DNA of 64,000 nt from Lycium barbarum. Its lineage: Eukaryota; Streptophyta; Magnoliopsida; Solanales; Solanaceae. Shown one piece after another: positions 10,221-64,000 of the stretch (the stretch's first letter is position 1; the number at the start of each line of letters is the position of its first letter). Location: NCBI RefSeq assembly GCF_019175385.1, contig NC_083344.1, positions 59,830,782 through 59,894,781 on the forward strand, in the 5' to 3' direction. The notes below the pieces were generated by a model. It saw nothing but the letters and a program-made list of their open reading frames with translations. It had not been told where the DNA came from and made no database searches. Both the position numbers and the translations under genes were made by a program.

Positions 10221-10323
10221 GGACGCGAAAATATCAGCATTAAGACACCGAATTCTAGTGAAGTTTTTGGGTTAAGCGTGCTCAGGTGGGAGCAATTCCA
10301 TGATGAGTGACCCCCTGGGAAGT
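10221..10323 (+). pseudogene. 5S rRNA-derived sequence in E4
   Basis: About 103 nt aligning with 5S rRNA from its 5' end to GGGAAGT. The best-kept blocks are GTTAAGCGTGCT (A-box region) and TGATGAGTGACC...CTGGGAAG (C-box region). The first half (ggacgcgaaaatatcagc) is more diverged. There is no T-run terminator directly after it, so it is not an ordinary 5S gene. It has the same position and orientation as in E7, E10 and E13. Confidence 0.85.
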
Positions 10324-11295
10324 TGACAAGAAATTTCATAAATTGAGACATAAGAGACAAATTAAAAGCTAAGGTAGTCTAAGGAAAACTAGAGTGTACG
10401 GAATGGTTGGAGACTATAAGAGGACACGTAGGACGAGGCAGACTAGCTCGGTGAAGAGACAGAAAGTACATCACAGCCCTAGAATTAGGATAGACTTGAA
10501 TAACATTTAGACGTAATTTGTGGGCTAGCTGATAGTGATTATATACATATATATGTGAAGATATAGGATATTCCAAAATGAATGTATAGGTGAATCTCAG
10601 AGTTCCAGTAACCGGCACTATGACAAGAAAGGCATTAATTAAACAAAGGAATAGTTCACGAGCTTTATAACTCGTATGAAGAAATAGCAAGAAAAGAAAG
10701 GTACTCGAAGACGGTTAGTATATAAGGAGTCCCCTAAAGGGGGGGGGGGGGGGAGACCATATTATATTAGACCTAAAAAGGAATTGCAACACTGTTAAGT
10801 GTCAGAAAAGGAAATCTATTAGCTTGGAATCAGAGTTCAAAATATGTCGGCGTGTCGCAAGAATACTTGGGAGAAGAGTAGAAGCGAAATAACAATGAGT
10901 ATACTAAGAGATAGACCTGAGGATAAAGAAATAGCCTATGGCTACATTGAATCGGTAAGTAAGGATTGTGTACTAAGACATGGCTTCTGTTAAGGTACGG
11001 TGTCGAGACAATAATAAAAAAGGAAGGACCCAGAAAGAACAAGGATAATGAGGTGACACAGTGAGTTAGAAAAACCTATGACATAGAGCAGTGACTCATG
11101 AAAAGTCAAGGAGTTCGATTATAAGGAAAATAAGGTAAAGGATAAGGAACGGGCATAATGGAAAGAGCAGCTATAAAAGAAACCCATGACATGGAATGAG
11201 GACTCATGTAAGGATCCAGGAGTTTGACAGTAAGGAAAGTAAAATAACAGATATGGAATGGACATGGAGAAAAGGGTAACTATAAGGGAACCCCC
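10324..11295 (+). other. E4 internal region after the 5S-like segment, no ORF
   Basis: Purine-rich non-coding sequence related to the corresponding part of E13. It contains a run of 15 G at 10739-10753. It ends at 11295 without the AACATTCG/CGAATGTT hairpin and polypurine tract seen before the 3' LTRs of E7, E12 and E13. Confidence 0.6.
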
Positions 11296-14200
11296 TGGGT
11301 TATGAAAGTTAATTAGGAATATCGTTGATATGGAATATTGAGAAAGACTAAGGGCGAAGAGGAAAATTCACAAAATGTCCCATGGTAATATCATGGAAGT
11401 CTAAGGGTAAAATGGTAATTTCACAAGTGTTCAAGAAAGTTCATGAAAAATCCCAAGTTGGCCGTGTGGCATGTGTTGCATATGTCCACATTTCTATTAA
11501 TTAGTGGGGGCCTAATTATAACTTATAAGGACATATGGACCAAAGCTTACAAAGGAAGACACTTAGTCTTCTTTATTCATTTTTAAGAAAATTCAAGAAA
11601 ATGGAAGAATTCTCTAGGAAAATAAAGAAAGGAGCATGTGGCCATTTCATAAGTGAAGGGAGCAAAGTGTAAATATAGATGGAATAAGGTGTACAAAAGA
11701 AGACACTTGGTCTTCTTTGACCAAGTGAGGAAATTTAAGAAAAGAAAAGAAAAATCAAGAAATAAGAGGAAAACTCTAGAAGAAAAAGGAAAGGGCTATG
11801 TGCCAAAATTTTCTTAATTGATGGACTAAAGCATAAATATGGAAAGGTGGTGGAAGGAATGTATATATATATATATATATATATATATATATATATATAT
11901 ATATATATATATATATATATATATATATATATATATATATATATATATATATATATATATATAAGGGTCATCTCTTAATTGAAGGAAAGAGGAAAGAAAG
12001 ACACAAAAACAAAAAAAAAAAAAAACAAAAGAGAGAGAGGGGTGGAGGTTTCGTCCATGGCTAGCAAAATCTAGCCATGGAAAATTGATAAGGAAAAATT
12101 ATTTCCTCCTAATATTCTAGCTCATTTGGAGGTCCGCTACAACATGGAGTGATTGTTAGAGGAGGTAGAACACTTGCGGTGCAAGATGGGAACCCTATGC
12201 CAAGAGAGAAGTTGAAGAAAAAAGGTAAGCTTTCATCTCTTTTGTGTGTTGTGGATGGTTCATATATGTTGTAGGTTGAAGGAATGAATGAACTAAGTGA
12301 AAATATGTGAGTTGTATGTTGGCCGAATATATGTGTGATGTTGGATTGAAATGATGAATTAATGTTATTTAGTAATTTGATTGTCGAGTTGTGGAAGATA
12401 GTTGTAACCAAGTATTATGTTGCATGAGTTGGTCGTATGTGTGCTTTGTGTGCATGAGAAGAACGAGTTGATTTTATGTAGTATGTTATTGTTGTGGAAA
12501 TGTCTAGAGATGGATGAAAATGCATGAAAATATGTAAGAAGTGGTTATGGTCAATTAATAGGTGTTTTGGTAAGTTAACGAAAATTGATGTTATTTGACA
12601 TTCTAGTTGTCGCCGTTACAGATTATGTGATGAAGAATGAAGGTTGTTGTTGGAGTTAGCATACACGAATTATGATGATATACATGGTTTCTGTTGAATT
12701 GAATAGAATTGGATATTGAAATGTTGCTAGAAAAATTGTTGGTATTGTTGATCATTTGGCCGGGTTGAATTCCCGGATTGTTGTTGGCTAAAATTGGCTA
12801 AGTTGAAGTTTTGGAGATGGTGTATTTATAGGGGAAGTGCTGCCGAAATTTCGGTAGACAAATGTTACCTTAAGATTCCACTTCTAAATGTTCTAATCAA
12901 GGTTTGGAAAATGTGACCAAATTGTAGATTTTGGCGGATTTGCAACTTGAATTTGGAGTAGCATGAGGAGCGGAAAAAGGTATGTAAAGTTTTATCCTTT
13001 ATTCTTTGGCATGTCTTAGACATACTAGGTTGGATATGAACCTCGAGGACAACTCTATTCTCCGGAATCCGCACCTAAAGTTTCCCCTTTTTCATTCAGT
13101 AGAATTGAATTAGAAAGGGTGCGAAATGTTGGAAAAACCTCCTAAACATCTAGAACTTGCATAAATATGACCCGACTACCTTAAAACTATCACAAGTGAC
13201 GTCATTAAAGGTAATGTACGTAAATTTGGTACGCTGCCTCATTTGACCCGAGGTGGGCCCATTGTTCCCGGATTTTCTTATCGCTCCGTTATCAAGTGAC
13301 AAGTACTGCAACTATTCTAATGAGAATATTTCTATGATGATAATGATAACGATGATGTAAGGAAGAGAATATGTCTATGATAAGTATGACAAGAATGATT
13401 CCATGACTAAGAGTCTTAAGCCAGGATTCAATATGAGTATGAAAGTATCAAGCTAGTTATTGATCTTTAATTCTATTCCCTGGGTCATGACACTATCTTC
13501 TAAAGAATCCAAAGCAGATGAATTGATTTCTAAGACGTCTATGACTTCATTCTATGTTTCTTTCAACGCCACTCTTCATTGATAGTCTCGCCTTAAAATG
13601 CTCGTTCCTTCAAGGTGAGACAAAGCGATCACGGTTATTCCATAATATAATCGGAGGTCACCGACCTTACGTTACTCCGATGGATACATGATTTTCCTTG
13701 GGCTCTCCTGCATGCTTATATGACATATGTATATAAGATATGTATATGAACATGGGGTGGGGGGAGGGATACATGGGGCATGGGAAGGGAAACATGTTTC
13801 ATTGCCACCTGGTCAGCAGGCTTATCATCCCGGATGCGGGATGCCCGGACGCGGGATATATGGGCGAGCCGATGTATTTCGGTGCTATGTGGGCGAGCCG
13901 ACATTGTTTGGTGCTATGCTATGACCTGATATGATATGACATGATATGCTATGACCTGATATGATATGACATGATATGCTATGACCTGATATGATATGAT
14001 ATGACATGATATGATATGACATGATATGCTATGACCTGATATAATATGACATGATATGATATGACACGATATGATATGACATGATCTCATATGATATGAT
14101 ACGATATGATATGATATGATAAGACATGACATGACATAAGTTCTATTTTCTATGTCTATGAAAAAGAAATGTTTTTAAAAGGGAAAGAGAAGCATGCACG

Positions 14201-63090: not shown

Positions 63091-63627
63091 ACGAAGAGAT
63101 CAGCTTCAGATAGTGGGGGTGCTAAGAAGGCCCCTAGAGTATCTCCAGGACCCCAGGCTCCAGGACCGAGCAGGAGGAGCCTCAGTTATTCTATTGAGAC
63201 TAATCCCTCGGAGGACCCAACGACGATTCCACCAGAGTTCTTGACTCCCAGGGAGGAGGACCCCCCAGAGGACAGTTATGATACAGATCCGTCCGAGTAT
63301 TCGTCGGGGACACCGGAGGAGGAGATTCCCGCGGCCGTACCAGCTGCTCCTATGGTAGAGCACTACATCAGACCAGCCTCCCCGGTGAGTGTTACGGATT
63401 ACTCCATCCCCCTAACCTGGCCGTCGGTAAACCAGGAGTTACCTGGTTATGTATATCCCTCGGATTCAGATGAGAGAGATGACGAGGGCCAGACGAGCAG
63501 ATGGTGGGTAGACGATGATGAGGAGCACACTTCACCTAGTCCACCAGATCAGACTAGAGACCGATCGTCTACAGGTATATTAGACTTTATTGGAATTTTC
63601 TATGTATGTGTAATTGTTGTAGACTAG
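63091..63627 (+). pseudogene. E10 copy of the acidic ORF, start codon lost
   Basis: Open for 178 codons from ACG 63091, which aligns with ATG 22492 of E7. The next in-frame ATG is 63241. Conserved blocks: GGAKKAPRVSPGP, SYSIETNPSEDP, PPEDSYDTDPSEYSSGTPEE, YPSDSDERDDEG. An acceptor-like TTTTCCTGCAG ends at 63069. The C-terminal hydrophobic tail (FIGIFYVCVIVV) probably reads into what is 3' untranslated in E7. Either the copy is dead or initiation is non-AUG. Confidence 0.6.
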
Positions 63628-63921
63628 AACTTAATAGCGGCAAGCGGAAATCCAAAGGGGCCGATAACCAAGTATTTATAAGTAACGGCGATCAAGGTGT
63701 TTTCGCCACCAGTGGGAATCTGGAAATCTAAGATGAAAGGTAGTCATACATACAGGTGAAAGGTGAAAATTAAGGATTGAAAAGGGCAAAATAGTAGTTG
63801 TGTAATCGGAAGAGTAAGAGACCCTTTCTAATTCAGAGGGGGACACGTTACGAGCATGTTTTGGAATCTGTTAAGACTTGAACTTGCTCCAGACTATGTG
63901 ATGAAGGTCATGCGATGAGGT
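63628..63921 (+). other. E10 internal region before the 5S-like segment
   Basis: Non-coding. From about 63842 (acacgttacgagcatg) to 63921 it is the conserved flank that also precedes the 5S-like segments of E4 and E13. Confidence 0.6.
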
Positions 63922-64000
63922 GGATACAATCATACCAGCATTAACGCACCGGATCTCATCAGAGTTTCAAGGTTAAGCGTGCTGGGGTGAGAGAAATGTT
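63922..64000 (+). pseudogene. 5S rRNA-derived sequence in E10, cut by window end
   Basis: The best-preserved 5' half of the four copies: GGATACAATCATACCAGCA, GCACCGGATCTCATCAGAG, then GGTTAAGCGTGCTGGGGTG. It starts at base 1 of 5S rRNA. The 3' part is beyond the window. Confidence 0.9.

What the first reader, a model, noticed from the sequence alone, without database searches (positions are those of the whole stretch)
10221..64000. A 5S rRNA-derived module in the internal region of four non-autonomous LTR retrotransposons
Seen: 10221-10323 (E4), 23791-23892 (E7), 57257-57360 (E13) and 63922-64000 (E10) all align in sense orientation with 5S rRNA from its first base towards GGGAAGT. The best-kept parts are GTTAAGCGTGCT and GATGGGTGACC, which lie in the Pol III internal control region (A box and C box). 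About 80 nt upstream are also conserved in E4, E10 and E13, so the module is ancestral and not four separate captures. Known: Cassandra elements carry 5S sequence, but in their LTRs. Here it is internal, after the primer site and, where present, after the acidic ORF. Inference: it could give Pol III transcription, TFIIIA or L5 binding, or nuclear export of the genomic RNA. I do not know of a description of this arrangement.
Basis: partly seen in the sequence, partly recalled or inferred. Interest (0 to 1): 0.88.

Follow-up and report, generated by a model that had tools for sequence, protein, structure and literature searches.

The report
5S promoter inside a plant retrotransposon
A large family of jumping genes in a wolfberry-like plant carries, in its middle, a piece of the cell's own 5S ribosomal RNA gene whose promoter boxes have been kept almost unchanged while the sequence around them drifted, which suggests the element still uses them.

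Summary
Four elements carry a sense 5S rRNA-derived segment (5S positions 1-103) behind the primer site, outside the LTRs; E10's, cut by the window end, is complete beyond it. The window's genome holds 8,975 matches to an A-box pattern that its 5S genes do not fit. Of 90 copies picked by a flank pattern without 5S letters, 90 carry the segment. Against this genome's own 5S gene, A-box core, C box and 98-103 are 95-97% kept, other stretches 49-77%. Private changes strike boxes and flanks equally (1.8% v 1.6% per site), but subfamilies differ by 1.5% in boxes and 27% in flanks: selection, not a cold spot. RNA pairs show no convincing covariation. Best reading: an internal type-1 Pol III control region, captured once from 5S rRNA, where reverse transcriptase is missing. 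TFIIIA/Pol III recruitment is inferred; there are no expression data, and downstream T-runs give no sign of a long Pol III RNA. Not Cassandra, whose 5S lies in the LTRs. I found no description in the searches I could run.

The parts
10221..10323 (+). 5S-derived module of E4 (5S 1-103); A-box core exact, C box with one change
10271..10282 (+). A-box core GTTAAGCGTGCT of E4
6155..9516 (+). E4 5' LTR (start TGGGTTATG, not canonical)
9520..9531 (+). E4 primer-binding site TGGTATCAGAGC
11296..14770 (+). E4 3' LTR
19154..22203 (+). E7 5' LTR (99.5% to its partner; TSD GTGTC)
22208..22219 (+). E7 PBS
22489..23073 (+). E7 acidic ORF (194 aa, no Pfam match)
23791..23892 (+). 5S-derived module of E7; A-C spacing one base short
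23841..23852 (+). A-box core of E7
23871..23881 (+). C-box core GATGGGTGACC of E7
25220..28268 (+). E7 3' LTR
53525..56752 (+). E13 5' LTR (nested in E10's 5' LTR)
56756..56767 (+). E13 PBS
57257..57360 (+). 5S-derived module of E13; fits the published Cassandra box A-18 nt-box C pattern
57307..57318 (+). A-box core of E13
57338..57348 (+). C-box core of E13
58731..61978 (+). E13 3' LTR
62874..62885 (+). E10 PBS (5' LTR ends 62869)
63085..63627 (+). E10 acidic ORF (180 aa stop to stop; 168 aa of it scanned, no Pfam match)
63922..64000 (+). 5S-derived module of E10, cut by the window end; complete beyond it with exact A and C boxes
41264..52746 (+). possible helper: Ty3/gypsy element with gag-pol and a chromodomain-like end, TSD GAATA, without the 5S module

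Best explanation
The module is a type-1 RNA polymerase III internal control region (A box, intermediate-element core, C box) taken once from a host 5S rRNA into the internal region of a chromovirus-like Ty3/gypsy LTR retrotransposon, in the place where reverse transcriptase is now missing. It is kept by selection on the replicating lineages of this non-autonomous superfamily. Shown: 5S origin, shared junctions and flanks (hence one ancestry), internal position, selection on A box, IE core and C box. Inferred: that it acts as DNA, bound by TFIIIA and TFIIIC, and so recruits Pol III (or at least these factors) inside the element, next to Pol II transcription from the LTR. Inferred further: since its transcript could not contain both LTR ends, it does not make the genomic RNA; it more likely yields a separate non-coding RNA or keeps the chromatin of the copy accessible. 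Also inferred: capture by template switching on 5S rRNA, because the likeness starts at the 5S +1 base.
For: Weighted identity to this genome's own 5S gene in 90 flank-sampled copies: A-box core 51-62 0.973, C box 80-97 0.951, 98-103 0.945, against 0.57-0.76 for stretches of 1-49 and 0.49 for 73-79. Information content of A block 1.85 and C block 1.75; 0 of 436 and 0 of 427 windows outside reach this. Private changes per site alike in boxes (41/2231) and flanks (192/11985), between-subfamily difference 1.5% v 26.6% (four clusters at that threshold). Cs kept 94.6% in boxes, 49.3% in 1-49. Published Cassandra box A-18 nt-box C pattern in 58 of 90, reversed control 0. Likeness starts at 5S +1; by eye none to the host's 5S upstream sequence. 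PBS upstream (up to 2 mismatches) in 31 of 43 unique loci, reversed control 4; downstream (up to 1 mismatch, about 1.4 kb seen) in 0 of 43. gag-protease upstream and RNase H/integrase/chromodomain downstream in different members, no RT match. E7's LTRs are 99.5% identical with a perfect TSD, so a module-bearing copy moved recently.
Against: No transcript or binding data. T4 runs are not depleted downstream (121 seen, 91 expected, 38 loci) and only 29 of 90 copies have a T4 within 30 nt after position 103, so neither a long Pol III RNA nor a neat 5S-sized RNA is evident. No specially conserved TATA-like element near -28 (21 of 50 ICR-picked copies usable). IE 67-72 as a whole only 0.77 kept. 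18 of 90 copies lack an exact A-box core and 17 of 90 an exact C-box core, which would fit dead copies but was not shown. 10 of 90 have a missing base between 51 and 99 and 27 of 90 an extra base somewhere in the module; E7 itself is one base short between the boxes. In the subfamily closest to 5S, positions 1-49 are more alike than flanks (0.856 v 0.76-0.79), so some constraint beyond the boxes is possible there. All 90 copies come from one contig.
Confidence: 0.66

Rival explanations
1. RNA-level function: the module in the genomic RNA is a 5S mimic that binds L5 or TFIIIA and helps export, packaging or splicing, in the manner of the plant 5S mimic exon in TFIIIA mRNA (recalled).
For: Several helix pairs stay standard in most sequences (14-65 37/37, 20-58 37/37, 34-41 36/37, 31-46 33/37); the 5S-like subfamily keeps 1-49 rather well.
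Against: Pairing is about what shuffled partners give; the largest excess is 2-3 sequences, at 31-46 and 34-41. Pairs 15-64, 29-48, 30-47 and 33-42 are broken in 16, 10, 14 and 16 of 37. The stretches opposite the boxes drift much as the flanks do. Position 75 (loop E) is A, not G, in practically all of the 90. The 3' strands of helices I and V are missing.
Confidence: 0.12
2. TFIIIA/TFIIIC binding without transcription: the boxes serve as a chromatin or insulator site (like extra-TFIIIC sites) that shields or opens the copy for Pol II transcription from the LTR.
For: Boxes kept, sequence further downstream of the module little kept (information falls to about 0.5-0.9 by +200 to +400), T-runs not avoided: the product seems not to matter.
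Against: No occupancy data; type-1 control regions normally lead to transcription (general knowledge).
Confidence: 0.17
3. Relic without function: a hitch-hiking 5S fragment.
For: Many single copies have damaged boxes (18 and 17 of 90); 1-49 evolves like flanks.
Against: Roughly ten-fold or more lower divergence of boxes between subfamilies with equal private mutation (three thresholds); 0 of over 400 outside windows as conserved.
Confidence: 0.04
4. It is Cassandra, or a piece of it.
For: Same boxes and spacing (58 of 90), same PBS motif.
Against: 5S outside the LTR and after the PBS; LTRs of 3 kb; gag or acidic ORF in many members.
Confidence: 0.03

Closest known systems
Cassandra (TRIM with 5S promoter; PMC7215508 and PMC10853983: passages seen)
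   Same: 5S-derived box A and box C with 18-nt spacing; variable letters between boxes; PBS TGGTATCAGAGC; non-autonomous.
   Different: There the 5S lies in the LTRs, ahead of the PBS; elements are under 1 kb and show no coding remains. Here it is internal, after the PBS and any ORF, in elements with LTRs of about 3 kb.
Ajax / Helenus, 'TRIMp3' (PMC10886601: outline, first of six parts and discussion read)
   Same: Non-autonomous LTR elements with a small-RNA-derived Pol III promoter; Ajax keeps only part of 5S.
   Different: Promoter in the LTR; Helenus 311-1263 bp, Ajax 421-434 bp; the author ties small size to Pol III processivity.
TR-GAG elements (PMC9784723: passages seen)
   Same: Two LTRs around a gag-coding internal region, no RT (as L155 and L156).
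   Different: The passages seen mention no 5S or Pol III sequence.
LARDs (PMC7215508: passage seen; long LTRs recalled)
   Same: Non-coding internal core, needing helper proteins (as E4 and E13).
   Different: No 5S module in what I saw.
SINE3 (as described in PMC10886601)
   Same: 5S-derived Pol III promoter in the head.
   Different: No LTRs; moved by non-LTR retrotransposon machinery.

Membership tests
Cassandra | 5S-derived sequence in the LTRs | tested here: not met
   Module lies between PBS and 3' LTR in E4, E7, E13; PBS upstream in 31 and downstream in 0 of 43 loci.
Cassandra | box A and box C separated by 18 nt | tested here: met
   58 of 90 flank-sampled copies, E13 and E10; not E4 or E7.
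Cassandra | TRIM size, no coding remains | tested here: not met
   LTRs about 3.0-3.5 kb; gag-protease reading frames of 542, 490 or 286+209 aa in L154-L156.
Cassandra | Pol III transcription | not testable with these tools
   no RNA data
LTR retrotransposon, non-autonomous | LTR pair, PBS, TSD, no RT | tested here: met
   E7 LTRs 99.5%, TSD GTGTC; E13 TSD with one mismatch; PBS exact in all four; E4 without a matching TSD; E10 only partly seen. No RT match in 48 three-kb loci (45 unique) nor in L154-L157, E4, E7, E13, E10 as far as held.
TR-GAG | gag as the only retrotransposon protein between two LTRs | tested here: met
   Only for the subfamily of L155 and L156: 5' LTR, PBS, gag-NC-PR reading frames, module, 3' LTR start at about +1.4 kb in the same places (L001/L012, L023). 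It also holds part of the protease region.
5S mimic RNA (P5SM-like) | RNA fold kept by compensating changes | tested here: not met
   37 sequences, 21 pairs, pairing close to shuffles.
Type-1 Pol III promoter | A box, IE and C box at 5S spacing under constraint | tested here: met
   of the IE mainly 70-72; exact spacing in a majority only (58 of 90 with both boxes).
Type-1 Pol III promoter | TFIIIA binding and transcription | not testable with these tools
   no expression or binding data
Tekay/Del chromovirus (helper) | gag-pol with chromodomain | tested here: inconclusive
   gag PF03732 56.8 bits; chromo PF00385 22.3 bits, below its cut-off 25.1. The lineage name is recalled, no tree was made.

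The most novel reading that the evidence does not exclude
A dual-polymerase retrotransposon: a non-autonomous Ty3/gypsy superfamily that is copied through a Pol II genomic RNA but also depends on an internal Pol III (TFIIIA-type) unit, captured from 5S rRNA in place of reverse transcriptase and kept by selection through several subfamilies and thousands of copies.
Probability: 0.45. Interest if true: 0.86.

Novelty: new variant of a known kind. Interest (0 to 1): 0.74.

Why it matters
In the papers I saw, Pol III promoters in LTR elements lie in the LTRs of miniature elements, and their small size is explained by Pol III processivity (PMC10886601). An internal, selected 5S control region in elements of 8-9 kb does not fit that rule and asks what a Pol III site does for an element that cannot use it to make its genome. 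It is testable: thousands of copies, several subfamilies, young insertions. Practically, the published box A-18 nt-box C query for Cassandra also fits many of these elements (58 of 90), so Cassandra or 5S counts in such genomes may be inflated.

Tried and rejected
Rfam at gathering threshold on the window gave nothing; the permissive run found three of four modules, below threshold. Scans of viral and prokaryote collections for the module gave 0, as expected for plant DNA. Long Pol III transcript: unsupported, T-runs not depleted. Conserved terminator close to the module: 29 of 90 against 73 of 1080 background windows; an excess, but in a minority of copies, so not claimed as a family feature. 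Conserved TATA-like element near -28: no clear peak. RNA covariation: none convincing; of 115 modules only gapless ones without extra bases were used (61, the two lone 5S copies left out), thinned to 37; this dropped E7, E13 and E10. The list of helix pairs came from the Rfam structure line and general knowledge. Mutational cold spot: rejected. RT beside the module: no match seen. The Capsicum paper PMC7076952 (passages) speaks of 5S only as rDNA in the passages seen.
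Full report
WHAT IS THERE. A local alignment scan of the window against plant 5S rRNA gives four peaks (105, 92, 78, 71) and nothing else above 32 on either strand. Each lies in sense behind a primer-binding site TGGTATCAGAGC and outside the LTRs. 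E4, E7 and E13 have both LTRs in the window (95-99%, 99.5% and 97.1% identical); E7 has a perfect 5-bp target duplication, E13 one with a mismatch, E4 none that I could match. E13 sits inside E10's 5' LTR. E10 runs off the window; the next stretch of the chromosome completes its module with exact A and C boxes, and sequence like the start of the other LTRs follows about 1.8 kb further. The Rfam 5S model scores 32.2, 29.6 and 21.8 bits for E10, E13 and E7, below its threshold of 38, and does not list E4.

HOST AND COPY NUMBER. The window lies in an unnamed 1.67-Gb genome. Of 25 protein relatives of the acidic ORF 13 carry names, all Lycium, so it is very probably a Lycium; the species was not tested. 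The pattern GTTAAGCGTGCTNNNGNNNGAGNAAT, which the host 5S gene does not fit, occurs 8,975 times, its reversed control 0 times. A pattern from the upstream flank without any 5S letters occurs 5,322 times, control 1. Of the 100 places listed I took 90 (30 loci given by the search, 60 fetched), all on contig C1. All 90 carry the module (scores 48-131; reversed controls at most 28).

ORIGIN. The genome's 5S genes lie in an array of about 392-bp units. Of the first ten listed exact matches to the 5S core, all dispersed, eight are members of the same retrotransposon family, with modules identical to the host 5S at 94-101 of 103 positions (28 of these positions fixed by the search pattern); the other two are lone full-length 5S copies. 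Where the start is preserved, likeness begins at the first base of 5S; in all it ends at about position 103; by eye the host's 5S upstream sequence is not shared. Shared junctions and flanks speak for one capture. The start at +1 suggests capture from the RNA by template switching; that is inference. Rfam recognises 8 of 8 of these closer copies above threshold and 2 of 11 flank-sampled others.

ANATOMY OF THE FAMILY. In 43 unique family loci of 3 kb (48 held, three duplicates and two lone 5S copies removed) a PBS (up to 2 mismatches) lies upstream in 31, reversed control 4; downstream (up to 1 mismatch) in none. Members differ in what precedes the module: an acidic ORF (E7, E10 and others), or gag with nucleocapsid and protease (5 unique loci), or little. 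L154-L156 show gag-protease reading frames of 542, 490 and 286+209 aa just before the module; L155 and L156 also show the whole 5' LTR, and the 3-kb loci of the same places reach the 3' LTR, with no RT between; of L154 only the LTR end, the PBS and about 1.5 kb after the module were seen. L039 has gag-protease before and an integrase remnant after the module; L157 (the place of L028) has RNase H, integrase and chromodomain after it and no gag or RT match. I infer that the module occupies the place of reverse transcriptase in a chromovirus-like element. A possible helper without the module, with gag-pol and with LTR ends, PBS and purine tract like those of E7 and E13, lies at 41264-52746. The name Tekay for this lineage is from memory.

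SELECTION. In the 90 copies, weighted to about 25 effective clusters, identity to the host 5S is 0.973 for 51-62 and 0.951 for 80-97; the other stretches are 1-13 0.759, 14-21 0.715, 22-34 0.648, 35-49 0.573, 67-72 0.77, 73-79 0.491, 98-103 0.945. The flank pattern did not select on any of these. Blocks 51-62 and 81-101 have information 1.85 and 1.75; none of 436 and 427 windows outside the module and the ascertained flank reach that (maximum 1.34 and 1.29). The decisive control separates mutation from selection: changes private to one copy within a subfamily are as frequent in the boxes (41/2231) as in 1-49 (55/3316) and in flanks (192/11985; boxes against flanks, Fisher p 0.41), while subfamily majorities differ by 1.5% in boxes, 23% in 1-49 and 27% in flanks; two other clustering thresholds agree (boxes 2.0% and 3.0%, flanks 30% and 29%). 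Only 3-6 clusters were large enough for the last figures. Spacing: 80 of 90 have no missing base between 51 and 99, but 27 of 90 have an extra base somewhere in the module; 58 of 90 fit the published Cassandra query of box A, 18 nt, box C, box A alone 80 and box C alone 70.

DNA OR RNA. If the RNA fold mattered, strands opposite the boxes should follow them. Over 37 distinct gapless modules, pairing in helices II, III and IV is close to what shuffled partners give. Position 75, in the loop-E motif, is A in practically all of the 90 where 5S has G, and the 3' strands of helices I and V are missing. What is kept is what TFIIIA and TFIIIC read on DNA (box positions from general knowledge; box consensus from PMC7215508). 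In the subfamily nearest to 5S, however, positions 1-49 are 0.856 alike against 0.76-0.79 in flanks, and G75 is kept (though fixed by the pattern that found these copies), so I do not exclude an added RNA role there.

WHAT IT WOULD DO. A transcript from the module lacks the PBS and the 5' LTR, so it cannot be the genome. T-runs downstream are not avoided, with a median distance to the first T4 of about 190 nt and only 29 of 90 copies with a T4 close by, and sequence further downstream is little conserved. I therefore favour factor and Pol III recruitment as such, giving a short non-coding RNA or open chromatin, over a long Pol III RNA.

NOVELTY. Cassandra, Ajax and Helenus have their Pol III promoters in the LTRs of small elements (PMC10886601 outline, part 1 and discussion; PMC10853983 and PMC7215508 passages). 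Searches combining 5S, LTR/Ty3/gypsy retrotransposon, non-autonomous, LARD, Pol III, Solanaceae and Lycium listed no paper whose title or shown start of abstract describes an internal 5S module in an LTR element; several lists were cut (20 of 38, 15 of 31, 15 of 36, 10 of 112). The wolfberry genome paper (PMC8175696) has no occurrence of '5S rRNA' in its main text. Repbase and most subscription journals were not searched.

Noticed in passing
window 33326-40637, minus strand: Another Ty3/gypsy element with 629-bp LTRs (97.8% identical) and interrupted gag-pol reading frames (34365-38589).
   Followed up: no
window 53525-61978: E13 is nested in the 5' LTR of E10, with near-matching 5-bp duplications AGATG/AGAGG.
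   Followed up: partly
window 6155-14770: E4's LTRs start TGGGTTATG, not TGTTAT, have no matching target duplication, and are 99% identical over the first 602 bp but 95% over the rest, as if of mixed history.
   Followed up: no
window 22489-23073 and 63085-63627: Acidic ORF of about 180-194 aa in the place of gag, no Pfam match; 13 of 25 relatives carry names, all Lycium, one of them called 'RPB1-like'. Whether it is under selection was not tested.
   Followed up: partly
L109:1452-1554: A family member whose module matches the host 5S at 101 of 103 positions although its flanks are only about 70% like those of E4 and E10: either strong constraint or later exchange with 5S.
   Followed up: partly
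L104 and L108: Lone, full-length dispersed 5S copies with TCCTTTT end, outside the array and outside this family.
   Followed up: no
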